NCBI GenBank assembly: GCA_016929525.1
Contig: JAFGIP010000071.1
Coordinates: 1 to 40,150, forward strand
DNA: 40,150 bases
Source: Bacteroidales bacterium
Lineage (GTDB): Bacteria; Bacteroidota; Bacteroidia; Bacteroidales; UBA10428
Direction of reading: 5' to 3'
Shown here: positions 14,630-26,422 of the stretch, piece after piece
How positions within the stretch are numbered: position 1 is the first letter of the stretch
How the letters are laid out: each line of letters begins with the position of its first letter
Notes under the pieces: generated by a model
What the model saw: only the letters and a program-made list of their open reading frames with translations
Told to the model about the DNA's origin: nothing
Databases searched by the model: none
Program-made: the position numbers and the translations under genes

Positions 14630-15211
14630 ATGAGAACCTTGTTATTTACTATATTGATTTCACATTTTTTATTACTGGATGCTCAGAATAAATTATTGGA
14701 TACCAGGGACAGCAATGAATATAATACTGTACAGATAGGTAATATGATATGGATGGCAGAGAACCTGAATTACAATGCAGGTGAGGGAGCGGTTTGTTAT
14801 AATAATACAGATTCAAATTGTGTGAAGTATGGCAGACTGTATGTTTGGGAAGTCGCGTTGAAATCATGTCCGTCTGGTTGGCATTTACCGACAGACGAGG
14901 AATGGAAGAAACTGGAGGTTATAATTGGGATGGATTCATCATTGACAGACATTGTTGGTACCAGAGGTAATAATGAAGGTATTTCTTTAAATGAAGGAGG
15001 AAATTCCGGATTTGAAGCTCTTTTTGGGGGATACAGGTTATGGTGGGACAAGTCATATCATTATTTGGATCATTATGGTGATTATTGGGCTGCTACCGAA
15101 GATAGTAAAGAGGAGGCCTGGTATAGGAATTTTAGTAAATATGACCCTGCTGTTTATCGCAACAGGATAAATAAGAAATATGCCTACTCAGTAAGGTGTG
15201 TGAAAGATTAA
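14630..15211 (+). CDS. Secreted FISUMP-domain protein
   Basis: 193 residues: signal peptide (1-18, hydrophobic, cleaved near LLLDAQ) followed by one FISUMP domain (Fibrobacter succinogenes major paralogous domain). The domain is recognised by VQIGNMIWMAENLNY, CYNN, YGRLYVW, CPSGWHLPTDEEW, YWAATE and the closing SVRCVKD. This C-type-lectin-like fold is found in secreted or outer-membrane proteins; its ligand is generally unknown. The DUF362 gene starts 17 bp after its stop, which suggests a two-gene operon. Confidence 0.85.
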   Translation: MRTLLFTILISHFLLLDAQNKLLDTRDSNEYNTVQIGNMIWMAENLNYNAGEGAVCYNNTDSNCVKYGRLYVWEVALKSCPSGWHLPTDEEWKKLEVIIGMDSSLTDIVGTRGNNEGISLNEGGNSGFEALFGGYRLWWDKSYHYLDHYGDYWAATEDSKEEAWYRNFSKYDPAVYRNRINKKYAYSVRCVKD

Positions 15212-15228
15212 TATTAAACCTGGAAAGT

Positions 15229-16800
15229 ATGAGCAACTCAAGAAAAATCGATTTAATGCCTGATTGGTTAAAAAAAATGAACCGCTTTTTAAAACAAGGA
15301 AGATTTCCGGTTAAACTGATATTTATTGTTATATCAGTGCTCTCAACTATTTGGTTTTTAATTCGGGTAATTCCAAAGCCAAGCCGGGCAACATATCCCT
15401 GTATGCAGGTTGCTTTCCCGTTCATGTCAGGTTTTATTATCTGGATTATTTCATTATCGGGTTCTTTTATAGCATTTAGAAAAGCTCGCTTACATTTCTT
15501 ACAGGCCCGTTACATGGCAGCATTTATTCTACTGCTTACCGGAACTCTTTCTTTATATATATTCCTGACTAAAAATGCAACACCTGTAATAGCCAATGTT
15601 GAACCCTGGTATCAACCAAATGATCCCGTTGGTGTAGCAAGAGGAATTTTTCCGGGAAGGGTAGCCTGGGCTCATGCCCCCGGAGCAGCAAATTGGGATG
15701 GCAAAACAGGTTACTGGTGGGAAGACCATTATAACAACCAGGTAAAAATCGATATGCTTTTTGATGAAGCACTGCTTTCACTAACTGATGAAAAAACAGT
15801 GACAGATGCATGGAATGCTTTATTTGTCAGTTTTAATCAAAAAATTAAAGAAAAGCAAACCGGTTATACTGTTAATGAAACAATAGCCATTAAAATAAAT
15901 CAGAACAATACTTATAGTCACGAAAACACAAATGAAATCAATACGACTCCTCAGCTGGTTCTTTCCGTTCTGAAAAGCCTGATTAATGATGCGAATATAA
16001 ATCAGCAACATATAATTGTTTTTGACAACAGCCGGTTTATTACAGATAATATTTTCAGCAAGTGTCATGGTTCATTCCCTGATGTACTATATATCGATAA
16101 TTCTGGAGGCAATGGAAGAATAAAAGCACAGTATGCTCAGGAGGCTTTACCATATTCAAAGGACAATGGCCGTCTGGCACGCGGACTGGCTAAATGTATG
16201 ATAGATGCTGATTATATAATTAACATGGCAGTTCTGAAAGGACATGTTGGACAGGGGGTAACACTATGTGCAAAGAATTATTATGGTGCAACCAATATAC
16301 ATGCCGACTGGAGGAAAAATGTACACAATAACTTCGATCAGGAACGCGATGGTAGTCCGCGGTATATGACATTTGTTGATTTCATGGGCCATAAAAATAT
16401 GGGAGAAAAGACCATGTTATTCCTTATTGATGCCATTTATGCCAGTAAATTTGTTGATGGTGTACCTTCGTTTAAAATGCAGATGAGTCCTTTTAATAAT
16501 AGCTGGCCGTCAAGTCTGTTTTTATCTCAGGATGGTGTTGCAATAGACGCTGTAGGCATGGATTTTATAATAAATGAATGGCCTGATGCTCCGGACCTGA
16601 AATATTGTGATCATTATTTACGCGAGGCTGCAATGCTGCCTGATCCGCCCTCAGGAACATTTTATGACCCGGAAAAAGATGGAACAGGCTTACAAAGTCT
16701 GGGTGTACTGGAACATTGGAATAATCCTAATGACAAACAGTATAGTCGAAACCTGGGTAAGGAGAAAGGAATTGAATTAATCTATAAAATTCTTGATTAA
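15229..16800 (+). CDS. Membrane-anchored DUF362 protein
   Basis: 523 residues. Three hydrophobic helices (about 28-46, 62-82, 94-113) with a conserved-looking SRATYPCMQ between the first two, then a large soluble domain (about 130-520) of the DUF362 type: GIFPGRVAWAHAPGAANWDG, DYIINMAVLKGHVGQGVTLCAKNYYG and VAIDAVGMDFI. DUF362 proteins are often found with Fe-S or sugar metabolism, but the function is unproven; no ferredoxin CxxCxxC motif is present in this one. I start at ATG 15229 (MSNSRK), since the upstream in-frame ATG overlaps the previous gene. It ends 1 bp before rex (convergent). Confidence 0.8.
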   Translation: MSNSRKIDLMPDWLKKMNRFLKQGRFPVKLIFIVISVLSTIWFLIRVIPKPSRATYPCMQVAFPFMSGFIIWIISLSGSFIAFRKARLHFLQARYMAAFILLLTGTLSLYIFLTKNATPVIANVEPWYQPNDPVGVARGIFPGRVAWAHAPGAANWDGKTGYWWEDHYNNQVKIDMLFDEALLSLTDEKTVTDAWNALFVSFNQKIKEKQTGYTVNETIAIKINQNNTYSHENTNEINTTPQLVLSVLKSLINDANINQQHIIVFDNSRFITDNIFSKCHGSFPDVLYIDNSGGNGRIKAQYAQEALPYSKDNGRLARGLAKCMIDADYIINMAVLKGHVGQGVTLCAKNYYGATNIHADWRKNVHNNFDQERDGSPRYMTFVDFMGHKNMGEKTMLFLIDAIYASKFVDGVPSFKMQMSPFNNSWPSSLFLSQDGVAIDAVGMDFIINEWPDAPDLKYCDHYLREAAMLPDPPSGTFYDPEKDGTGLQSLGVLEHWNNPNDKQYSRNLGKEKGIELIYKILD

Positions 16801-16801
16801 C

Positions 16802-17413
16802 CTATAAATTGATGTTATAGATAATTCCCTCCAGTTTATTACTAAGGTTGATGTTATCTACTATTATTTCATCCGGGACTTTCAAAATGATAGGTGCAAA
16901 ATTCAATATTCCCTTGATACCTGCAGAAATAAGTATATTGCATAATTCCTGTGCAACCTGGAATGGTACAGCAATAATAGCAGTAGAAACATTATTATTT
17001 TTAATAACCTCACTTATTTTCTCAACAGGATAGATTGGTACGCCATAACTCTTATTTTGCTTTGAAGGATCAATATCAAAACCCGCAACTATATGCAGGT
17101 TCTTTTTAACAAAACGCTCGTTATATTGTATAATAGCCTTTCCAATATTACCTATACCAACAACTACAATATTTTTTCTTGAGTTACCAAATATATTGTT
17201 CAACTCAATCAACAGGGTATCGATATTATAACCGCCTCTCTTTCTTCCTTTGATTCCATAAACCGAGAAATCTTTTCTCACCTGAACGGCTGTTACTCCT
17301 GCAGCTTCTCCAAGATTGTATGAAAAAATAGTATTTACTCCTAATTCTTTGAATCGTAGCAAACAAAGTTTATACTGTAACAGTCGTCCAATATCGCTTC
17401 GCACCAGTGACAT
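16802..17413 (-). CDS. rex: Redox-sensing transcriptional repressor Rex
   Basis: 203-residue Rex. Dimeric repressor that leaves DNA when NADH binds, so it derepresses fermentation, hydrogenase or respiration genes at a high NADH/NAD+ ratio. N-terminal winged helix (about 1-76), with RKDFSVYGIKGRKRGGY as the recognition-helix and wing region, then a Rossmann domain with VVVGIGNIGKA (83-93) for NAD(H), and a C-terminal swapped helix. Slightly short of the common 210-215 residues. It is transcribed away from the Hdr-hydrogenase genes from a shared 215-bp region that holds an operator-like site, so it very probably controls them. Confidence 0.95.
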   Translation of the reverse strand: MSLVRSDIGRLLQYKLCLLRFKELGVNTIFSYNLGEAAGVTAVQVRKDFSVYGIKGRKRGGYNIDTLLIELNNIFGNSRKNIVVVGIGNIGKAIIQYNERFVKKNLHIVAGFDIDPSKQNKSYGVPIYPVEKISEVIKNNNVSTAIIAVPFQVAQELCNILISAGIKGILNFAPIILKVPDEIIVDNINLSNKLEGIIYNINL

Positions 17414-17431
17414 TAATGTTCCGTTTGTAAC

Positions 17432-17448
17432 TTAATAGTGGTTATTAA
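17432..17448. promoter_or_regulatory. Inverted repeat near the rex start
   Basis: TTAATA-GTGGT-TATTAA, 6-bp arms, 19 bases upstream of the rex ATG. It could be an autoregulatory site, but it does not match the Rex consensus well. Confidence 0.25.
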
Positions 17449-17521
17449 TTTCAAGTATTTACATAAAATACCTATAAATGCTGCAATTTACGGTAATTGT
17501 CCATATAACACATTATTTTTA

Positions 17522-17539
17522 TTGTATTTATTTTCACAA
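17522..17539 (+). promoter_or_regulatory. Candidate Rex operator
   Basis: TTGTATTTATTTTCACAA is 18 bp with the spacing of the Rex operator consensus TTGTGAA-N4-TTCACAA. The right half is exact (7/7) and the left half keeps TTGT (4/7). It lies midway between rex (17413) and the first Hdr gene (17629), as expected for a Rex-controlled divergent region. A further AT-rich palindrome, AATATTAATATT, lies near 17597. Confidence 0.5.
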
Positions 17540-17628
17540 AAAATTGATTTCATTCCGATAATATCTTATTTTTATTTCGTTAATGTGATTTTTAGAATAT
17601 TAATATTAAATACAAAATCCTCTGAGCC

Positions 17629-19440
17629 ATGAGAAAAGCAGTTAAAACTGGCATCTATTTTTCTCACCCTGTTGGTAGTCAAGCTCATACAATCAATTAT
17701 AGGGAACTTTATAAATATATTAAAAATGTTCCGGTTGTAACAAAAATCTGGGATTCTACCGTAAATCCCATATCTGATGAAGAATACTTTACAGGTGAGA
17801 TAACAAGTAAGTCCATAAACAGAATTATTATTGCCGGGTATTTGCCGGGTTACCTAAAATCGATTTTTTCTAGATTTTTAAAAAAGGCCGGAGAAGAAGC
17901 AGAAAACATTTCATTGGTTGAACTGTACGAACATCCTTTACCAGATGTGCCAAGCACGGAAATTGCAAAATCAAAACTGATCTGTGCAATATATGATGTG
18001 CCCTATGAAGCGGCTATATTGGCCGAGATGAACCCATCGCAATCGGAAACCCTTGTAATTGGAGGTGGGATAGCTGGTATACAGGCAGCACTGGATATCG
18101 CCAATAGTCATAACAAAGTATATCTGGTAGAAAAAACCGGAACAATTGGCGGACACATGGCTATGTTCGATAAAACGTTTCCAACACTCGATTGCGCCGC
18201 ATGTATTCTCACACCTAAAATGGTAGAGGTGAGTAACCACCCTTTCATCGAATTAATGACATATAGTGAAATTAAAAAGATATCCGGTATTCCTGGTAAT
18301 TATTCAGTAAACATATTACAGAAAGCAAGAAGGGTTAATGTAAACACATGTACAGGATGTGGCACTTGTGCCGAAAAATGCCCGGGTACTTCAAAAAGTG
18401 AATTCGATGCAGGAACAACGATGCGTAAGGCAATTTATATGCCTTTCCCACAGGCAGTTCCTAATAAATATCTTATAGATGCTGATTCATGCCGATATGT
18501 GCAGAATGGGAAATGCGGAGTCTGTGTAAAAAACTGCCCGGTTGAGAACTGTATCAATCTGGATGAAAAAGATAAGGAGGTTGAAGTACAGGTTGGAAAT
18601 ATTGTTGTAGCAACAGGTTTTAAAACCTTTAATGCTTCAAGAATGGAACAGTATGGTTATGGGAAATATCCTAATGTACTTACATCTCTGGAGTTGGAAC
18701 GACTTGTTAATGCAGCAGGTCCTACCGGGGGGAAAATTAGCTTCCGAACACAGGATAAAAAAGGGAATTGGGTTTTTACTGCAGAAGGCCCTGAACCAAA
18801 GAGTGTAGCAATTATTCATTGTGTCGGGAGCAGGGATGAAAATTATAATAAATATTGTTCCCGGGTATGTTGTATGTATTCTCTGAAACTTGCTCACCTT
18901 ATTAAAGAAAAATTACCCGATGCTGAAATTTTTGAACATTATATTGATATGAGAGCATTTGGCAAGGGTTATGAGGAATTCTACGACCGTATTCTTCATG
19001 AAGGTATACATATTATTCGTGGCAAAACTGCTAAAATAGAAGAACACCAGGATAAATTACTTCTTCGCACGGAAGATATCGAGCATAACAGGATACTTGA
19101 GCAGGAGGTCGAGATGGTTATATTATCTGTCGGGCTTGAACCCAATAATGAAACAGGTGATCTTGCCTCGATACTTGGGATTGGTTTATCTGCAAATGGA
19201 TGGTTACAAGAGGCCAATAGTCTAAGCAACACTACTGAAACGAGTAGCGGAGGTATTTTTATAGCCGGAACATGCCAGGGACCAAAGGATATCCCCGATT
19301 CTGTTGTTCAGGCTTCGGCAGCAGCTTCAGGAGTAATTCAAAGTATCATGCTGAAAAAAACAGAACAAAGCATGAAAAATATATCATTATCAACCATCGA
19401 ATCAAAAGCCAGGGAACTTTCCCTGATAAATGGAGAATAA
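17629..19440 (+). CDS. HdrA-like flavoprotein (QmoA-like), inserted-ferredoxin type
   Basis: 603-residue soluble flavin and Fe-S protein of the HdrA/QmoA family, expected to carry electrons inside an Hdr/Qmo complex. N-terminal region (1-135) has the HdrA N-domain shape but none of its cluster cysteines. FAD domain starts at VIGGGIAGIQAA (143-154); LDCAACILTPKM (188-199) is an HdrA hallmark. An inserted ferredoxin domain (about 236-315) has C241xxC244xxC247xxxC251P and C288, C296xxC299xxxC303P for two [4Fe-4S]. A C398-x11-C410-x3-CC set can bind one more cluster. The C-terminal ferredoxin domain of full HdrA is absent. The start is firm: an in-frame TGA is two codons upstream. First gene of the operon. 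Confidence 0.88.
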   Translation: MRKAVKTGIYFSHPVGSQAHTINYRELYKYIKNVPVVTKIWDSTVNPISDEEYFTGEITSKSINRIIIAGYLPGYLKSIFSRFLKKAGEEAENISLVELYEHPLPDVPSTEIAKSKLICAIYDVPYEAAILAEMNPSQSETLVIGGGIAGIQAALDIANSHNKVYLVEKTGTIGGHMAMFDKTFPTLDCAACILTPKMVEVSNHPFIELMTYSEIKKISGIPGNYSVNILQKARRVNVNTCTGCGTCAEKCPGTSKSEFDAGTTMRKAIYMPFPQAVPNKYLIDADSCRYVQNGKCGVCVKNCPVENCINLDEKDKEVEVQVGNIVVATGFKTFNASRMEQYGYGKYPNVLTSLELERLVNAAGPTGGKISFRTQDKKGNWVFTAEGPEPKSVAIIHCVGSRDENYNKYCSRVCCMYSLKLAHLIKEKLPDAEIFEHYIDMRAFGKGYEEFYDRILHEGIHIIRGKTAKIEEHQDKLLLRTEDIEHNRILEQEVEMVILSVGLEPNNETGDLASILGIGLSANGWLQEANSLSNTTETSSGGIFIAGTCQGPKDIPDSVVQASAAASGVIQSIMLKKTEQSMKNISLSTIESKARELSLINGE

Positions 19441-19443
19441 ATC

Positions 19444-20535
19444 ATGAACAGGGTCGATCCAAAATTTAAAGACAAACTTAAACCTTATGGTATATCAGAC
19501 TGGAATGAATGTTTTCATTGTGGGAATTGTACCGCTATTTGTTCTCATTCTGAAGATAGTTTATTGATGCCAAGGAATGGAATAAGGGCCATTCAGTTGG
19601 GTCTTAAAGATAAAATTCATAATAATGTTGATCCCTGGTTGTGCTATTATTGCGGAGATTGTAGTGAAGAATGTCCGCGAAATGCCAATCCGGGTGAATT
19701 GATGATGGCTTTAAGAAGATACCTGACTACAGTCTATGACTGGACAGGTGTTTCCCGCATTTTCTATACTTCGCGTACAGTAATGATAGCCGCCTTTTTG
19801 ATTGTTGCTGCTGCAGTTGTGGGAATCGGAGCAATGTATTCCTTTCAGCTTGAACCAATAATGGAGTTTGGACACTTATTTGAAAAAATTGCGATTATTT
19901 CTGTTGCAGCATTTATCCTTTTACCGAATATTATTAGAATGTTCCGATTGACATTAATAAAACAAAAAATAAAAGTGCCACTTTCAACATTATTATCCGG
20001 AATCGCTGACCTTGTGATCAATATGTTTACACAGAAAAAAACATTAGACTGTAAAGAAAACAGAGTAAGATGGTTTGAGCACTTTATTCTGGTACTGGGT
20101 TATTTATTGCTGCTTGCTACAACAGTTTTTCTAAACTGGTTTGGTACTGATAACATTTATATAATCATATTTGGATATGTTGTTGGAGCTATAACTTTTA
20201 TTGTGACTTTCGATTTTATAATAAGACGAATAAGAAAGAAAGCAGAGATAAGCAAATTCTCCCATCTTTCAGACTGGATGTTTGTTGTTTGGCTTTTTCT
20301 TATGGGTCTTTCAACTTTTTTAATCAGGGTATTTATTGATATAGGTATAATTCAGGATCATCTCTGGTTATACCTTGTCCATTTAATTATACTTGCTCAG
20401 TGGGCAGTTATTATTGTGCCATTTGGAAAATGGATGCACTTTCTTTATCGTTCATTTGCCATATATATTGCTGAAATGAAGAAAAAAGCGCTGTCGCTGA
20501 AACAACAAAATCAAGTAACAACAATTACTGCGTAA
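19444..20535 (+). CDS. QmoC-like: HdrC ferredoxin fused to membrane domain
   Basis: 363 residues. The N-terminal HdrC-type part has two [4Fe-4S] motifs, C23xxC26xxC29xxxC33 and C67xxC70xxC73xxxC77P. A C-terminal membrane part follows with about six helices (roughly 112-131, 146-166, 212-232, 238-260, 277-297, 306-327). Several histidines lie in or beside helices (His144, His213, His306, His313, His332), suitable for heme b, as in QmoC/DsrM/HdrE-type subunits. The fused layout is that of QmoC, the quinone-facing subunit of Qmo. The gene begins 3 bp after the HdrA-like gene. Role inferred: passing electrons between the Hdr flavoproteins and menaquinone. Confidence 0.85.
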   Translation: MNRVDPKFKDKLKPYGISDWNECFHCGNCTAICSHSEDSLLMPRNGIRAIQLGLKDKIHNNVDPWLCYYCGDCSEECPRNANPGELMMALRRYLTTVYDWTGVSRIFYTSRTVMIAAFLIVAAAVVGIGAMYSFQLEPIMEFGHLFEKIAIISVAAFILLPNIIRMFRLTLIKQKIKVPLSTLLSGIADLVINMFTQKKTLDCKENRVRWFEHFILVLGYLLLLATTVFLNWFGTDNIYIIIFGYVVGAITFIVTFDFIIRRIRKKAEISKFSHLSDWMFVVWLFLMGLSTFLIRVFIDIGIIQDHLWLYLVHLIILAQWAVIIVPFGKWMHFLYRSFAIYIAEMKKKALSLKQQNQVTTITA

Positions 20536-20545
20536 ATTATTTTGT

Positions 20546-22276
20546 ATGGAAGAAATAAGAATTGGTGTATATATATGTTGGTGCGGATCTAACATAGCTC
20601 AGCTGATCGATGTGAAATTCATCGCAGGCGAAATTAAAAAGCTCGAGAACGTTATAATTTCTAGAGATTATAAGTATATGTGTTCTGATCCGGGGCAGGA
20701 AACGTTGATTGCTGACATCAAACAAAATAAACTGAACCGGATTGTGGTAGCAGCGTGCTCACCCCGGATACATGAACCAACTTTTCGCAAAGCTCTTGAA
20801 AAGGCGGGATTGAATCCATATATGTTCCAGATGGCAAACATTCGTGAGCAGGATTCATGGGTTCATATCGATAAGGAATATGCTACATTAAAAGCTGTTG
20901 CCCTGGTAAAGGCAGCTGTAAGCAGAGTAAAGCACCATGAACCTTTAAATAAAAAGTCTGTTGAAGTTAATTCTGCAACTATGGTGATTGGTGGTGGCAT
21001 TACCGGTTTAACCTCCGCATTGGAAATTGCACAGGCGGGCAAACAGGTATATTTGATTGAGAAATCTGATTCTCTGGGGGGAATAACGGCCAAAATCGAT
21101 CTTACTTACCCGGATTTGAAAAGTGCAGGTCAGATGATTCGTCCTAAAATTTCACAAGTACAAAATCATAATTTGATAGAGGTCTTCCTGAACACGATCC
21201 TTGAAGATATTAGCGGATACGTAGGTAATTTCAGTACCAAAGTAAGAAGAAACGGTACATCGGAAGAAATAACCTTTGGAAATATAATAGTTGCTACCGG
21301 GTTAAAACCGTTCAGTCCTGTGACAATTCCTGAATATAAATATAAAGTACTGCCAGATGTGATAACCTCCATTGAACTGGAGAAGATGCTTCAGGATGGA
21401 ACAGTTAAAACTAGTGATGGTTCAAAACCGGATAATATTGCAATTATACACTGTGTTGGCAGTCGCAATGAACAATATCATCCTTATTGCTCTCGCACCT
21501 GTTGTTCAACAGCCTTAAAATATGCAAATCAGCTCAGAAGCTTGCTGCCAGATGCTCACCTGTTTGATATATATGCAGATATGAGGGCTTATGGTAAAGG
21601 TTGTGAAGAATTTTATACCAATACTTCAAACAAGAATATCATGTTTTTGATGTATGATCAGAAAAACGGATTACCTGAAATCAGAAAAGCAAACAGCTCA
21701 GATAATGCAGGTATGATCATAACATTTAGTGAAAAATTGTCTGGTGAAAATATCGAAGTACCGGTCGATCTGGTAATATTGATGACTGCTGTTGAAGCCC
21801 ATGAAGATGCAAAAGAGGTTGCACGATTAACAGGTATAAGTCTGTGTGGTAACGATTTTTATATCGAAAAACACCCAAAACTCGATCCTGTTGCTACCAC
21901 AACAGATGGTGTATACATAGCAGGTACATGCCAGGGTCCGAAAGGTATTGACGAAAGCATAGTACAGGCAAAAGCTGCTGCAGCAAAGGTATTATCAATG
22001 ATAGCTATGGGCAGCATTGAGATTGAAGTAGCTGTTTCACACGTTAACGAAGAAGTATGTTGCGGATGTCAGACCTGTATAATGGTGTGTCCATATAAGG
22101 CAATAAGTTTCGACGAAGAAAAAAATGTTTCTGTTGTTAATGAGGCTTTATGTAAAGGTTGCGGTACTTGTGGATCAACTTGTCCTACCGGTGCAATAAA
22201 AAGCCTGCATTTTACCGATATACAAATTCTCTCTCAAATTGAGGGCCTCTTAAAAACTGAATCTGAAACTATCTAA
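20546..22276 (+). CDS. HdrA-like flavoprotein (QmoB-like), C-terminal ferredoxin type
   Basis: 576 residues, HdrA/QmoB family. The N-domain is intact with Cys11, Cys13, Cys46 and Cys71 (ICWCGSN, MCSDPGQ, AACSPR) for one [4Fe-4S]. FAD domain from VIGGGITGLTSA (147-158). C303-x11-C315-x3-C319-C320 is the atypical HdrA cluster motif. The inserted ferredoxin domain of HdrA is missing, and the LDCAAC hallmark has become LKSAGQ. The C-terminal ferredoxin (about 500-552) has C505xxC508xxC511xxxC515P and C536xxC539xxC542xxxC546P. Next gene is MvhD, which in QmoB is fused to this position; here the two are separate genes 10 bp apart. Confidence 0.88.
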   Translation: MEEIRIGVYICWCGSNIAQLIDVKFIAGEIKKLENVIISRDYKYMCSDPGQETLIADIKQNKLNRIVVAACSPRIHEPTFRKALEKAGLNPYMFQMANIREQDSWVHIDKEYATLKAVALVKAAVSRVKHHEPLNKKSVEVNSATMVIGGGITGLTSALEIAQAGKQVYLIEKSDSLGGITAKIDLTYPDLKSAGQMIRPKISQVQNHNLIEVFLNTILEDISGYVGNFSTKVRRNGTSEEITFGNIIVATGLKPFSPVTIPEYKYKVLPDVITSIELEKMLQDGTVKTSDGSKPDNIAIIHCVGSRNEQYHPYCSRTCCSTALKYANQLRSLLPDAHLFDIYADMRAYGKGCEEFYTNTSNKNIMFLMYDQKNGLPEIRKANSSDNAGMIITFSEKLSGENIEVPVDLVILMTAVEAHEDAKEVARLTGISLCGNDFYIEKHPKLDPVATTTDGVYIAGTCQGPKGIDESIVQAKAAAAKVLSMIAMGSIEIEVAVSHVNEEVCCGCQTCIMVCPYKAISFDEEKNVSVVNEALCKGCGTCGSTCPTGAIKSLHFTDIQILSQIEGLLKTESETI

Positions 22277-22286
22277 CATTTGAAAT

Positions 22287-22712
22287 ATGACTTTTGAACC
22301 AACAATAGTATCATTCCTATGTAACTGGTGTTCGTATACCGGTGCTGATCTGGCAGGAACGTCACGTATTCCTTATTCGCCCAATCTAAGAACTATACGA
22401 ATTATGTGCTCCGGTCGCATTGAACCGACTTTCGTCATGAAAGCATTTCGTGAGGGAGCTGACGGGGTATTAATGTGCGGATGTCATCCGGGAGACTGCC
22501 ATTACCACGAGGGTAACTACAAATGTTTAAGAAGGTATCATCTTCTTCAGAAATATATAGTGCAGATGGGCATTGAAAAAGAAAGAATGCGCCTTGAATG
22601 GATTAGTGCCAGTGAAGGGAAACAGTTTGCGGCCCTGGCTGATGAATTTACAGAAACAATTAAAAAACTTGGCCCAAGCAAGATTAAAAAAGTGATGGAA
22701 ACACTGACGTGA
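22287..22712 (+). CDS. mvhD: Hydrogenase Fe-S subunit MvhD/FlpD-type
   Basis: 141-residue MvhD family protein, which carries a [2Fe-2S] cluster and connects the hydrogenase to HdrA. The diagnostic motifs are all present: [11 protein letters not shown] (11-21; Cys12, Cys15), MCSGR (Cys41) and [11 protein letters not shown] (63-73; Cys64, Cys66, Cys71). Length is the usual 130-145. Its place between the second HdrA-like gene and the hydrogenase genes is exactly where such an electron bridge would be encoded. 78 bp separate it from MvhG, with no terminator. Confidence 0.93.
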
Positions 22713-22790
22713 AATATATAAAAAATATTAAGTGAATGTATTAAGAAAAGATTATACCAAGTAACTATATCAAAACTATTAATTAGGAAT

Positions 22791-23780
22791 ATGGAAAAGG
22801 AAAAACCAAAACTTAACCTGGCAGTATACTGGGGAGCAGCATGTGGTGGTTGCTGTGTATCTGTGCTCGATGTACACGAAAAATTATTTGACGTTGTTGC
22901 CAACGCAAACCTTGTATTTTGGCCAATCGCACTTGATACTAAATACAGCGACGTTGAAGCAATGCCTGACGGGTTTATTGATGTGACTCTTTATAACGGT
23001 GCTATAAGAAACAGTGAGAATGAACATATTGCTAAATTATTACGACAAAAAACAAAAGTTATGGTCGCTTATGGCTCCTGTGCTCACCTGGGTGGTATTC
23101 CCGGACTGGCAAATTTTCATACCGGAAAGGAAATATTTGAAAGAGTATATGTAAGCTCGGAATCAACTGTAAATAAAGAAAAAATATATCCACAGACCAG
23201 TTATAAAATTCCTGAGGGAGAACTGACTTTACCTGAATTTTATAATGATGTAAGGACTCTCGGACAGGTTGTGGACGTTGATTACTATCTTCCCGGATGT
23301 CCGCCTCAGACAGAGAGGTTACTTGAGGTATTCATGGCTATTGTTAAAAAGGAAGAGCTTCCACCCAATGGATCAGTTATAGGAGCTACAGATAAAGGTC
23401 AGTGTGATGAATGTCCCAGAAAACGTTCCGATAATAAAAAGATAAAACAGTTTAAAAGACCTGTAGAAGTAATTGACGACGGAGAAACATGCTTTCTCGA
23501 GCAGGGACTTATATGTATGGGCCCGGCTACACGATGTGGCTGTGGATACAGGTGTATAGAGGGGAACAGCCCTTGTCGTGGATGCTATGGTCCTCCTCCT
23601 GGTTCACCTGATCCGGGTTCTAAAATGATGTCGGCAATCGGTACCATGGTAGGCTCTGACGATCCGGAAGAGATCGCGAAAATTGTTGAACAGATCGAAG
23701 ATCCGGCAGGAACTTTTTATCGCTTTAGTCTGCCGGCAGCTATTCTAAGACGAAAATTAATTGAAACTACCGTATCATGA
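22791..23780 (+). CDS. mvhG: [NiFe] hydrogenase small subunit, MvhG-like
   Basis: 329 residues, electron-transfer small subunit. The N-terminal domain has the proximal-cluster cysteines: AACGGC (Cys18, Cys21), GSCAHLGG (Cys97) and PGCPP (Cys170). The C-terminal part (about 200-270) is rich in Cys (205, 208, 234, 242, 249, 251, 255, 262, 265), suited to two more clusters. No twin-arginine signal is present, so it is cytoplasmic, as in group 3 enzymes. Its TGA overlaps the large-subunit ATG (ATGA at 23777), so translation is coupled. Confidence 0.94.
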   Translation: MEKEKPKLNLAVYWGAACGGCCVSVLDVHEKLFDVVANANLVFWPIALDTKYSDVEAMPDGFIDVTLYNGAIRNSENEHIAKLLRQKTKVMVAYGSCAHLGGIPGLANFHTGKEIFERVYVSSESTVNKEKIYPQTSYKIPEGELTLPEFYNDVRTLGQVVDVDYYLPGCPPQTERLLEVFMAIVKKEELPPNGSVIGATDKGQCDECPRKRSDNKKIKQFKRPVEVIDDGETCFLEQGLICMGPATRCGCGYRCIEGNSPCRGCYGPPPGSPDPGSKMMSAIGTMVGSDDPEEIAKIVEQIEDPAGTFYRFSLPAAILRRKLIETTVS

Positions 23781-25237
23781 AACAATATACCATTGATCCA
23801 ATAACAAGGCTAGAAGGCCACGGTAAGATAGAAATATTCTGTTCCGATGAAGGAGAAGTTGAAAATGTATATTTCCAGGTACCGGAACTTAGAGGGTTTG
23901 AAAAGTTTTGTGAAGGCAGGCTGGTTGAAGAACTCTCACAAATAGTGACTAAAATCTGCGGAGTATGTCCCGGTTGCCACCATATGGCTTCAGGCAAAGC
24001 TGCGGATGCGGTATATAGTTTGGAGATTCCACCAACTGCAAAAAAACTTCGTGAACTTTTTTACATGGCTCATTTCATTCATAGTCATATTGCTCATTTT
24101 TATGCCCTTGCAGCACCCGACTTTATTGTAGGACCGGGAGCTCCTGCAGCAGAAAGAAATATTCTTGGTGTAATCTCGAAAGTAGGGACCGAAATTGGAA
24201 CAGAAGTAATAAAACAAAGAAGAAGGGCACAGGAAATACAGGCACTCCTTGGAGGACACCAGACTCATGTGGTAATGAATATACCCGGGGGGGTTCGGAA
24301 AGGACTAACTGAAGAAGAAAGAGATGAAATTATTATTAAGGCTAAAGATTTTATTGAATTCTCAAAATTTACTATACAAATTTTTAATGATGTTGTTCTG
24401 GGTAATAAAGATTATGTAAATTTGATTTTAAATGGTCCTTATTCTCTGAAAATACATTCGATGGGTCTGGTCGATGAGAATAACAATGTTAATTTCTACG
24501 ATGGCAAAGTACGTGTAGTAAATACGACAGGAAAAGAACTGTGCAGGTATAAAGGGGTTGAATACTTAAATCATATTGAAGAAAGAGTGGAACCCTGGAG
24601 TTATTTGAAATTCCCGTACTTAAAGAAGAAGGGGTGGAAAGGATTCGTTGATGGCGAAGATTCGGGAGTATATCAGGCAACTCCTTTATCACGATTAAAT
24701 GCTGCCGATGGGATGGCTACACCGCTTGCTGACACTGAATATAAAAGAATGTTTGAAACACTTGGAGGTAAACCTGTTCATTCAACTTTGGCAATGCATT
24801 GGGCCAGGTTGATTGAACTTCTGTATGCATCTGAGAATCTATTACGTCTTGCTACAGATAAGGAAATAACAGGTAAGGAATTACGAAACATTCCAAGTAA
24901 AGTGATTGGCGAAGGTGTTGGAATAGTTGAAGCTCAGCGGGGTACTCTCACACATCATTATTGGACAGATAAAAAAGGAATAGTCACAAAAGTGAATATA
25001 ATAGTAGGGACAACTAATAATAATGCTGCCATATGCATGTCGCTTAAAAAAGCAGCACAGGGCCTTATTAAAAAGGGCAAAGAAGTGACCGATGAAATAT
25101 TAAATATGGTCGAAATGGCTTTCAGAGCTTACGACCCATGTTTTTCGTGTGCCACGCATAGCTTGCCTGGCGAGATGCCTCTGATTGTAAATATACATAA
25201 ACACAATGGAGAGATTATAAAAACATTTAAAAGATAA
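23777..25237 (+). CDS. mvhA: [NiFe] hydrogenase large subunit, MvhA-like
   Basis: 486 residues, catalytic subunit for reversible H2 oxidation. All four Ni-binding cysteines are present: L1 motif KICGVCPGCHH (Cys61, Cys64; Lys in place of the common Arg) and L2 motif DPCFSCATH (Cys455, Cys458, His461). A 25-residue tail after His461 should be removed in maturation by the protease encoded next. RLEGHGK and GGHQTH are also typical. Association with MvhD/MvhG and HdrA genes indicates group 3c-like (Mvh) rather than a group 1 uptake enzyme; the subgroup is inferred from context. The hyp maturation genes are not in this window. Confidence 0.94.
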   Translation: MKQYTIDPITRLEGHGKIEIFCSDEGEVENVYFQVPELRGFEKFCEGRLVEELSQIVTKICGVCPGCHHMASGKAADAVYSLEIPPTAKKLRELFYMAHFIHSHIAHFYALAAPDFIVGPGAPAAERNILGVISKVGTEIGTEVIKQRRRAQEIQALLGGHQTHVVMNIPGGVRKGLTEEERDEIIIKAKDFIEFSKFTIQIFNDVVLGNKDYVNLILNGPYSLKIHSMGLVDENNNVNFYDGKVRVVNTTGKELCRYKGVEYLNHIEERVEPWSYLKFPYLKKKGWKGFVDGEDSGVYQATPLSRLNAADGMATPLADTEYKRMFETLGGKPVHSTLAMHWARLIELLYASENLLRLATDKEITGKELRNIPSKVIGEGVGIVEAQRGTLTHHYWTDKKGIVTKVNIIVGTTNNNAAICMSLKKAAQGLIKKGKEVTDEILNMVEMAFRAYDPCFSCATHSLPGEMPLIVNIHKHNGEIIKTFKR

Positions 25238-25253
25238 CCCAAAATCATTTCCT

Positions 25254-25781
25254 ATGAACGCACCTAAAACTACACTAATCCTGGGTATCGGAAACGATAT
25301 TCTGTCTGATGACGGTATTGGAATCAGATTAGTAAATGACCTTAAAGTCCAGCTGGATGAAGATACACTCCAGTTCGATACTCTTAATGTTGGCGGACTG
25401 GAAATTGTTGAACAGATACAACCATACAATAAAGTAATTATTATCGATGCGATAAAAACAAAACAAGGTGTTCCCGGAGAAGTAATGCACCTGACACCTG
25501 AAATCTTCAAACAAACTTCACACATCTCAAGTTTTCATGATATATCTTTTCTTACTGCCATTAAATTCGGACATAAAATTGGGATGAATATTCCAGAACA
25601 GATTGACATTATTGCTATAGAGATTGTCGAAGACATGGTTTTCAGCAGTCAGCTTTCTCCGATAATACAAAAGAGATACAAAAGGATATTAAAAGAAGTG
25701 GTTAAAATAACAAAAACAGTACTGGCAAAAACAGATAATAATACTCGATTACAATATTCCAATTATAAGGTAGTTTCCTGA
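25254..25781 (+). CDS. Hydrogenase maturation protease (HybD/HycI family)
   Basis: 175 residues. Endopeptidase that trims the C-terminal tail of the hydrogenase large subunit after nickel insertion. Metal-sensing residues match HybD: Asp20 in GIGNDILSDDGIG, Asp65 in IIIDAI and His95 in SFHD. It begins 16 bp after mvhA and ends the operon. No clear terminator follows in the 75 bases before the 25857 inverted repeat. Confidence 0.92.
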   Translation: MNAPKTTLILGIGNDILSDDGIGIRLVNDLKVQLDEDTLQFDTLNVGGLEIVEQIQPYNKVIIIDAIKTKQGVPGEVMHLTPEIFKQTSHISSFHDISFLTAIKFGHKIGMNIPEQIDIIAIEIVEDMVFSSQLSPIIQKRYKRILKEVVKITKTVLAKTDNNTRLQYSNYKVVS

Positions 25782-25909: not shown

Positions 25910-26350
25910 ATGTATTCAGTAAAAGATATTTTAGATGAGAAAGGGTACGATGTTTTCACGATCGATCCGGATGCCAGCGTTTACGAAGCTTTGAAGAAAA
26001 TGGCAGGACAAAATGTTGGAGCTCTTTTGGTCGTAAAAGGTGATCAGGTTATTGGGGTATTCTCCGAACGTGATTATGCCCGTAAGATTATCTTAATGGG
26101 AAAATCTTCTAAAGATTCCAAAGTTGGTGACCTTCTTTCTGAAAGGATTTTTTATGTTAAACCCACAACCAAAACAATAGAGTGCATGCAGTTAATGACC
26201 GACCACAAGGTAAGGCATTTGCCCGTTCTTGATGAAGGAAAACTCGTGGGGATTGTCTCAATCGGTGATATAGTTAATAAAATCATACAGGATCAAACCA
26301 AAACAATACAGCAGCTGGGAGATTATATTCTGGGAAAGACATTACCGTAA
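25910..26350 (+). CDS. CBS-domain pair protein
   Basis: 146 residues made of two CBS motifs (about 10-65 and 75-135), with GALLVV, VIGVFSERDYARKI, VRHLPVLDEGKLVGIVSIGDIV. Stand-alone CBS pairs bind adenine nucleotides (AMP, ATP, NAD or similar) and report energy state; the partner is unknown here. It is set apart from the hydrogenase operon by an operator-like repeat and is followed by a terminator, so it is probably transcribed alone or as a read-through tail of the hydrogenase genes. Confidence 0.9.
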   Translation: MYSVKDILDEKGYDVFTIDPDASVYEALKKMAGQNVGALLVVKGDQVIGVFSERDYARKIILMGKSSKDSKVGDLLSERIFYVKPTTKTIECMQLMTDHKVRHLPVLDEGKLVGIVSIGDIVNKIIQDQTKTIQQLGDYILGKTLP

Positions 26351-26396
26351 AACTATAAAGCGCATTTTCAAGATTTAATTTCAATGGGATCATGAG

Positions 26397-26422
26397 CAGG
26401 GCTTTTTGCAGCCCTGTTTTAG
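26397..26422 (+). terminator. Rho-independent terminator after CBS gene
   Basis: CAGGGCT (26397-26403), loop TTTTGC, AGCCCTG (26410-26416), then TTTTAG. A 7-bp GC-rich stem with T tail. Confidence 0.85.

What the first reader, a model, noticed from the sequence alone, without database searches (positions are those of the whole stretch)
16802..25781. Membrane Qmo/Hdr module joined to a [NiFe] hydrogenase under divergent Rex control
Seven same-strand genes encode two HdrA-like flavoproteins, a QmoC-type HdrC-membrane fusion, MvhD, MvhG, MvhA and the maturation protease, with rex divergent. HdrB and its CCG domains, the disulfide-reducing part of classical Hdr-Mvh, are absent, and AprAB, the usual Qmo partner, is absent too. 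The subunit list predicts a complex in which H2 electrons pass MvhG, MvhD and the HdrA pair to the quinone pool through the QmoC-like subunit, perhaps with flavin-based bifurcation to ferredoxin or NAD. I do not recognise a characterised enzyme of this composition in Bacteroidota. Subunit identities are seen; the complex and its direction are inferred.
Basis: partly seen in the sequence, partly recalled or inferred. Interest (0 to 1): 0.88.

Follow-up and report, generated by a model that had tools for sequence, protein, structure and literature searches.

The report
Quinone-linked [NiFe] hydrogenase gene cluster
A conserved gene cluster in Bacteroidota genomes appears to build a membrane enzyme that takes electrons from hydrogen gas and passes them to the cell's quinone pool, and probably to ferredoxin too, much as was proposed earlier for two hot-spring archaea; the enzyme itself still has to be tested.

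Summary
In detail: rex(-) at 16802-17413, then seven + strand genes to 25781 (hdrA1, qmoC-like, hdrA2, mvhD, mvhG, mvhA, protease). MvhA groups with methanogen MvhA/VhuA (group 3c), apart from HoxH. Order is conserved: of 20 further loci, 20 have hdrA1 beside qmoC; 13 reach mvhD-mvhG-mvhA and 7 end at contig ends. The two HdrA keep complementary iron-sulfur ligands (13 rows each): HdrA1 the inserted ferredoxin domain and 'Cys197', HdrA2 the N- and C-terminal clusters, a published sign of heterodimeric HdrA. Best reading: a Qmo-type complex that oxidises H2 and reduces menaquinone, probably bifurcating to ferredoxin; complex, direction and bifurcation are inferred. Corrections: AprAB is in the genome, on another contig beside its own canonical qmoABC; and the subunit list is not new, since an 'Mvh-Qmo-Hdr' cluster with the same proposed reaction is published for Ca. 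Methanoglobus (PMC10945360, passages). Added here: a conserved bacterial version, relatives with HdrABC beside the same hydrogenase clade, complementary cysteines, and a Rex-like site.

The parts
16802..17413 (-). rex, redox-sensing transcriptional repressor (203 aa), divergent from the operon
   Evidence: NF003996 197 bits, cut-off 138
17522..17539 (.). Rex-box-like palindrome TTGTATTTATTTTCACAA in the rex-hdrA1 spacer, one mismatch to TTGTGN8CACAA (consensus recalled)
   Evidence: 2 of 300 shuffles of the spacer as good; same-genus L037 has a perfect match at nearly the same place, 0 of 300. Over the whole window the pattern with up to two mismatches is at chance (18 found, mean 23.8 expected)
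17629..19440 (+). hdrA1 / QmoA-like flavoprotein (603 aa): FAD domain, inserted 2x[4Fe-4S] domain (C241/244/247/251, C288/296/299/303), cluster by FAD (C398/410/414/415), C192 = 'Cys197'; N-terminal domain without the cluster cysteines, no C-terminal ferredoxin domain
19444..20535 (+). qmoC-like membrane subunit (363 aa): HdrC-type 2x[4Fe-4S] (C23/26/29/33, C67/70/73/77) + helical membrane part with H213, H274, H313, H332
20546..22276 (+). hdrA2 / QmoB-like flavoprotein (576 aa): N-terminal cluster cysteines C11/13/46 (C71), cluster by FAD (C303/315/319/320), C-terminal 2x[4Fe-4S]; no inserted domain, no 'Cys197' (Q196)
22287..22712 (+). mvhD/FlpD electron-transfer subunit (141 aa)
   Evidence: PF02662 E 5.9e-54
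22791..23780 (+). mvhG, hydrogenase small subunit (329 aa)
   Evidence: PF01058 81 bits; VhuG-like 221 bits
23777..25237 (+). mvhA, group 3c [NiFe] hydrogenase large subunit (486 aa), with KICGVC and DPCFSCATH nickel-ligand motifs (roles recalled)
25254..25781 (+). hydrogenase maturation protease (175 aa)
   Evidence: TIGR00072 92 bits, cut-off 47
25910..26350 (+). CBS-domain protein, also next to the operon in same-genus G001 and G002; possibly part of the operon
26394..26419 (+). terminator-like hairpin after the CBS gene (pattern match only; the count in the region is at chance)

Best explanation
The operon encodes one membrane-anchored complex, a Qmo-type H2:menaquinone oxidoreductase. MvhA splits H2; electrons pass MvhG and the MvhD [2Fe-2S] cluster into the C-terminal ferredoxin domain of HdrA2. 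HdrA1 and HdrA2 form an obligate heterodimer, because the [4Fe-4S] cluster at their interface needs N-terminal cysteines from HdrA2 and Cys192 ('Cys197') from HdrA1. A flavin in this pair sends one electron stream through the FAD-side cluster to the HdrC domain and membrane part of QmoC and on to menaquinone, and probably a second stream through the inserted ferredoxin domain of HdrA1 to ferredoxin (2 H2 + MK + Fd -> MKH2 + Fdred). Rex represses the operon when NADH/NAD is low (Rex behaviour recalled). Shown: genes, order, conservation, cysteine pattern, 3c placement. Inferred: complex formation, quinone as acceptor, bifurcation, uptake direction, Rex binding.
For: Gene order: 20 of 20 loci with hdrA1 beside qmoC, 13 reaching mvhA and the other 7 cut by contig ends, 8 of the 12 family I loci among the 80 kept QmoC hits reach mvhA, the other 4 end at contig ends (maps). 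MvhA falls with MvhA/VhuA of solved HdrABC-MvhAGD, 100/99, apart from HoxH. Complementary cluster ligands in 13 HdrA1 and 13 HdrA2 rows, and the same logic in the genome's canonical QmoA/QmoB. HdrA1 and HdrA2 are each one clade (100/99, 100/97). Domain roles from PMC9012536, section 15 part 1 of 2: MvhD -> C-terminal ferredoxin domain -> FAD -> HdrBC, and via the N-terminal cluster -> inserted domain -> ferredoxin. QmoC H213 and H332 invariant and H313 at 90% or more in 74 rows; the better model's highest-probability fold matches are NarI (up to 0.93) and EtfD (0.77), though E is about 1. Rex-like site. hypD and an rnfB over its cut-off are in the genome. The same reaction is proposed for the archaeal cluster, which is highly transcribed.
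Against: No biochemistry for this complex was seen. QmoC scores below the qmoC cut-off (141.7 of 300); heme ligands are not established (H274 varies; fold matches weak or meaningless). Nothing shows ferredoxin reduction: the canonical QmoA of the same genome keeps the inserted clusters too. 5 of 13 HdrA1 rows, not the window's, keep a cysteine in the first of the four N-terminal columns. Direction is open. One of five loci without adjacent rex (L044) also has one-mismatch Rex sites, and for four of eight rex-adjacent rows the site is no better than 28-45 of 300 shuffles. PMC10945360 also offers that QmoC and QmoB there may be remnants of sulfate reduction (passage).
Confidence: 0.6

Rival explanations
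1. Same complex run in reverse: a confurcating, H2-evolving enzyme that takes electrons from reduced ferredoxin and menaquinol together and disposes of them as H2 at low H2 pressure (syntrophy).
For: Same anatomy. Confurcation by QmoA and QmoB is mentioned in PMC6037941 (passage). Rex, which senses NADH/NAD (recalled), fits a sink for excess reductant (inference).
Against: Menaquinol to H2 is strongly uphill except at very low H2 (recalled potentials). The genome also has a HoxEFUYH-type hydrogenase that could serve H2 release.
Confidence: 0.2
2. Plain H2:menaquinone oxidoreductase without bifurcation; the inserted ferredoxin domain of HdrA1 is only an internal relay.
For: H2 to menaquinone is downhill by itself (recalled potentials). 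The canonical QmoA of the same genome keeps the inserted clusters too.
Against: The inserted domain is kept in 13 of 13 HdrA1; in the HdrABC-MvhAGD model of PMC9012536 it is the ferredoxin exit.
Confidence: 0.25
3. The hydrogenase and the Qmo-like proteins form two separate enzymes that merely share an operon, the Qmo-like part serving another donor as in hydrogenase-free relatives.
For: QmoC of the window is closer to hydrogenase-free QmoC than to some hydrogenase-linked ones.
Against: Conserved tight order, including a permuted version that keeps the same set (L039, L043, L045, L210). HdrA2 has the C-terminal domain that receives electrons from MvhD in Hdr-Mvh. In L040 and L047 an HdrABC set takes the same place beside a 77% and 75% identical MvhA.
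Confidence: 0.07

Closest known systems
Mvh-Qmo-Hdr gene cluster of Ca. Methanoglobus hypatiae, there also credited to Ca. M. nevadensis (Archaeoglobi), PMC10945360 (passages read)
   Same: MvhAGD, two HdrA (one called QmoB by their tool), QmoC fused to HdrC, no HdrB; H2 bifurcation to menaquinone and ferredoxin proposed there
   Different: Archaea; no Rex mentioned in the passages read; sequences and gene order not compared here; stated there as a hypothesis
HdrABC-MvhAGD of methanogens (group 3c hydrogenase complex)
   Same: MvhA/G/D and HdrA architecture; MvhA same clade
   Different: no HdrB, HdrC is fused to a membrane domain, HdrA homodimer replaced by two complementary HdrA
QmoABC of sulfate reducers (type I)
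   Same: two complementary HdrA-type flavoproteins plus QmoC; same pattern in the genome's own aprBA-linked Qmo
   Different: hydrogenase instead of AprAB; MvhD not fused to the QmoB-like protein; QmoC below family cut-off; QmoA-like protein keeps an N-terminal domain
Type II Qmo of PMC10504309 (section 9 and passages)
   Same: QmoAB closer to HdrA than to canonical QmoAB; occurs with or without Apr and Dsr; function there called in need of study
   Different: no hydrogenase link in the parts read (the word hydrogenase does not occur in the main text held); their reference sequences were not in my trees
Heterodimeric or fused HdrA of ANME archaea and Moorella, PMC9012536 (section 15 part 1 and passages)
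   Different: partners named there are HdrBC, HdrD, FdhAB or MetFV, not QmoC plus MvhAG

Membership tests
Group 3c [NiFe] hydrogenase (Mvh) | large subunit groups with MvhA/VhuA rather than HoxH (3d) | tested here: met
   38-row tree, 100/99 split (the methanogen rows are long branches); 42.5% identity to 5odc MvhA, 36.6% to 5xf9 HoxH
Group 3c [NiFe] hydrogenase (Mvh) | MvhD and MvhG subunits, nickel-ligand CxxC motifs | tested here: met
Classical HdrABC-MvhAGD | HdrB with two CCG domains in the complex | tested here: not met
   PF02754 finds one CCG protein in the genome, in an etf/acyl-CoA-dehydrogenase cluster
Classical HdrABC-MvhAGD | one HdrA with all four domains | tested here: not met
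   domains split over HdrA1 and HdrA2
QmoABC (type I) | QmoC over the NF038018 cut-off (300 bits) | tested here: not met
   141.7 bits; the aprBA-linked copy in the same genome scores 393
QmoABC (type I) | linked to aprBA | tested here: not met
   aprBA sits on C9 with its own qmoABC
QmoABC (type I) | two HdrA-type flavoproteins with complementary clusters plus HdrC-membrane fusion | tested here: met
Type II Qmo | QmoAB closer to HdrA than to canonical QmoAB | tested here: inconclusive
   the tree agrees by branch length, but its canonical rows are long branches that join each other, and the paper's reference sequences were not fetched
Mvh-Qmo-Hdr (Methanoglobus) | MvhAGD + two HdrA + QmoC-HdrC in one cluster | tested here: met
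   subunit list against the text of PMC10945360
Mvh-Qmo-Hdr (Methanoglobus) | sequence kinship with the archaeal cluster | not tested
   archaeal sequences were not fetched
Heterodimeric HdrA | one copy with N-terminal cluster and no Cys197, the other with Cys197 and no N-terminal cluster | tested here: met
   13 of 13 HdrA2: all four N-terminal cysteines, no Cys197. 13 of 13 HdrA1: Cys197, and at most one of the four N-terminal cysteines (5 of 13 keep the first; the window keeps none)
Qmo / Mvh-Qmo-Hdr | menaquinone reduction, heme b, ferredoxin reduction | not testable with these tools
   needs protein

The most novel reading that the evidence does not exclude
A clade-wide bacterial [NiFe] hydrogenase that bifurcates H2 electrons to membrane menaquinone and soluble ferredoxin through a heterodimer of two HdrA proteins: flavin-based bifurcation wired directly into the respiratory quinone pool, evolved by swapping HdrABC and Qmo-type partners around one hydrogenase. 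It would also give a function to part of the type II Qmo family.
Probability: 0.45. Interest if true: 0.78.

Novelty: new member of a known kind. Interest (0 to 1): 0.58.

Why it matters
In the papers I saw, quinone-linked flavin bifurcation from H2 is proposed from Archaeoglobi genomes and one enrichment culture. A conserved family in Bacteroidota makes the idea testable in bacteria as well; record names suggest springs, cold seeps and the Black Sea as habitats (my reading of the names), and mesophilic relatives might be easier to handle than archaea grown near 75 C. The family I loci with names that I checked are MAG records. The heterodimer prediction (one cluster shared between HdrA2 and Cys192 of HdrA1) can be tested by single mutants. 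Operons that carry HdrABC, NuoEF-like, Etf-linked or fused-HdrA partners beside related MvhAGD show how one hydrogenase is plugged into different acceptors.

Tried and rejected
1. 'Classical Hdr-Mvh with HdrB elsewhere': rejected; the CCG protein found lies in an etf/acyl-CoA-dehydrogenase cluster.

2. 'Works for AprAB': rejected as the main role; aprBA has its own qmoABC on C9. No dsrA and no TIGR00339 sat were found in the genome, which is 97.7% complete, so absence is not proof; other kinds of sulfurylase were not sought.

3. MvhA as HoxH/group 3d: rejected. The genome's second [NiFe] enzyme is the Hox type.

4. Kept as weak support.

5. One origin of hydrogenase-linked QmoC: the 10 rows of the window's order held together are rejected (AU p 0.0027), but hydrogenase-linked rows of both orders together stand against the hydrogenase-free ones (99/98). 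Exchange of the membrane subunit or shared ancestry: undecided.

6. Promoter and terminator scans are at chance; the Rex pattern is at chance over the whole window and gains weight only from its place and from relatives. Rex-adjacent loci fetched later (L201, L209, L212, L215) were not scanned.

7. Literature: ten searches. One search found the archaeal prior art. Papers opened: PMC9012536, PMC10504309 (a section and passages each); PMC12054007 (outline and abstract); PMC9727166, PMC2702500, PMC5109826, PMC6037941, PMC8470020, PMC10945360, PMC7380581 (passages). All others were seen as listings only. None of the parts read describes this cluster in Bacteroidota; nothing outside this library was searched. 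Buessecker 2023, the source of the M. nevadensis claim, is not held, nor are two other papers sought.


Full report
OBSERVATION. The window carries rex(-) 16802-17413 and, divergently, seven + strand genes: 603, 363, 576, 141, 329, 486 and 175 aa. A CBS protein (25910-26350) follows and is also next to the operon in same-genus G001 and G002. Upstream, a DUF362 protein (15196-16800) ends just before the convergent rex.

THE HYDROGENASE. The best solved-structure match of MvhA is the MvhA of the HdrABC-MvhAGD complex, E 3.2e-119. In a 38-row tree it falls with the rows of 5odc, 9sw2 and 9sfi, 100/99, apart from seven HoxH-type rows and the 7t2r HydL row (the program warns of long methanogen branches). 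The genome's second [NiFe] enzyme is HoxEFUYH-like. hypD is present.

CONSERVATION. Of 148 relatives searched with MvhA, 47 match; 15, own genome included, hold the close form (72% identity or more, fragments included). In the stretches fetched, 9 of these 15 have the QmoC-type set (in G003 hdrA1 lies beyond the contig end), 2 (G096, G034) have hdrC-hdrB-hdrA in the same place, and 4 are cut by contig ends. Of these 80, 12 are family I: 8 reach mvhA and 4 end at contig ends; the other 68 show no MvhA in the stretch held. The sets overlap: by equal contig length L057 is G001, L083 is G003, L063 is L198 and L060 is L214. In 393 genomes drawn from the order, 33 match HdrA1 at E <= 1e-130; 26 hold it at 51% identity or more, and 7 only at 44-47% in frames of 658 to 691 aa, the size of full HdrA. 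Of the 26, six had been seen; 20 loci from 19 others were fetched (one of these genomes, G135, had been seen on another contig) and one, G777, was left out because the gene lies at a contig end. In these 20 loci, 20 have hdrA1 beside qmoC, 13 reach mvhA with the whole set (12 in the window's order, L210 permuted), and 7 are cut by contig ends. In an even draw of 395 genomes of the phylum, 33 match MvhA, Hox-type matches included. The 12 best non-own loci and one Hox locus were fetched. None has the window's arrangement: 4 have HdrABC, 3 a NuoEF-like set, 2 an Etf-linked set, 3 fused HdrA (one with a QmoC-like protein), 1 is Hox. So family I was not seen outside the order in that draw, though one named family I locus (L091) is labelled Chlorobiota.

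TWO HdrA, ONE DIMER. Published structure-based work says that HdrA is a dimer in which the N-terminal cluster takes one ligand, Cys197, from the other copy, and that tandem or fused HdrA with complementary losses probably form heterodimers (PMC9012536, section 15 part 1 and passages). C192 of HdrA1 aligns with that cysteine of the 5odc chain (alignment, numbering counted by me). In 13 of 13 HdrA1 rows the inserted clusters and Cys197 are present, the C-terminal ligands are missing, and at most one of four N-terminal cysteine columns is filled (5 of 13 keep the first; the window none). In 13 of 13 HdrA2 rows the four N-terminal and the C-terminal ligands are present and the insert and Cys197 missing. 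The cluster beside FAD is kept in all 26. The canonical QmoA/QmoB of the same genome follow the same logic, so this is a Qmo design. HdrA1 and HdrA2 are each one clade (100/99 and 100/97). Their exact relation to canonical QmoA/QmoB is unsure, because those rows are long branches that join each other.

THE MEMBRANE SUBUNIT. QmoC has eight invariant cluster cysteines and invariant H213 and H332, with H313 at 90% or more, in 74 rows. H274 varies. The better model (pLDDT 85) has NarI chains as the highest-probability matches (up to 0.93), but with E about 1. It scores below the qmoC cut-off. Its tree does not match that of the HdrA subunits: the window's QmoC lies on one side of a 100/100 branch with QmoC of hydrogenase-free clusters.

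REGULATION. In the spacer, TTGTATTTATTTTCACAA (17522-17539) has one mismatch to the recalled Rex box; 2 of 300 shuffles do as well. The same-genus locus L037 has a perfect box at nearly the same place (0 of 300), and L068 a one-mismatch box (2 of 300). All eight rex-adjacent rows scanned, of which L057 repeats L037, have a match within two mismatches, but for four of them (L039a, L058, L059, L061) 28 to 45 of 300 shuffles do as well. Among five loci without adjacent rex, one (L044) has one-mismatch sites.

GENOME CONTEXT. The genome has aprBA-qmoABC on C9, a third Qmo-like set with DsrE-like, TusA and FlpD proteins on C71, and an rnfB over its cut-off, so reduced ferredoxin would have a user. 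dsrA and TIGR00339 sat were not found.

MECHANISM. With recalled potentials (H2 -414, menaquinone -75, ferredoxin about -500 mV) the bifurcating reaction 2 H2 + MK + Fd is downhill by roughly 49 kJ per mol, so it is feasible; so is plain H2:menaquinone transfer. The retained inserted domain favours bifurcation but does not prove it.

PRIOR ART. PMC10945360 (passages) reports MvhAGD, two HdrA and a QmoC-HdrC fusion in Ca. Methanoglobus hypatiae, as earlier in Ca. M. nevadensis, highly transcribed, with H2 bifurcation to menaquinone and ferredoxin proposed as a hypothesis. PMC10504309 (section 9) defines type II Qmo, whose role it leaves open. The finding is thus the bacterial, clade-wide member of a kind already proposed, not a new kind.

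VERDICT. Observation confirmed; interpretation partly supported. Chief corrections: aprAB is in the genome, and the composition has archaeal precedent.

Noticed in passing
own genome C9:17.4-24.9 kb (L191:9426-16870): aprB-aprA-qmoA-qmoB-qmoC of canonical type in a Bacteroidota genome in which no dsrA and no TIGR00339 sat were found; the role of APS reductase here is unclear.
   Followed up: partly
own genome C71:36.2-42.7 kb (L193:4205-10726); L086, L099, L120, L122 and others: Hydrogenase-free Qmo-like cluster (in the own genome Crp/Fnr, DsrE-like, TusA, FlpD, two HdrA-type, QmoC), common among the 80 kept loci, incl. records named Petrimonas, Labilibaculum and Paludibacter; function undefined.
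   Followed up: partly
L177:2682-11411: QmoC-like protein plus a 1490 aa fusion of two HdrA with a GltD/DPD-like part (Fer4_20, Pyr_redox_2) plus MvhDGA: perhaps another quinone-linked version with an NAD(P)H site.
   Followed up: partly
L172:6325-15544 and L174:2764-11134: MvhDGA with full HdrA and an HdrC-like protein that shows CCG-type motifs by eye (print); in L172 also a NarI-Fer4-CCG membrane protein and an Etf alpha by Pfam, in L174 similar neighbours by eye: possible Etf-linked electron transfer.
   Followed up: no
L166, L167, L169: MvhDGA with NuoE/NuoF-like subunits and an HdrA-related protein whose N-terminus is a [2Fe-2S] domain (Pfam run on L166 only): probably NAD-linked.
   Followed up: no
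genomes G044 (L039), G115 (L044, L045), G644 (L209, L210): Two paralogous hydrogenase-Qmo operons in one genome, in the two different gene orders.
   Followed up: no
window 14630-16800: FISUMP-domain protein overlapping a DUF362 protein (its N-terminus looks membrane-spanning to the eye), just upstream of and convergent with rex.
   Followed up: no
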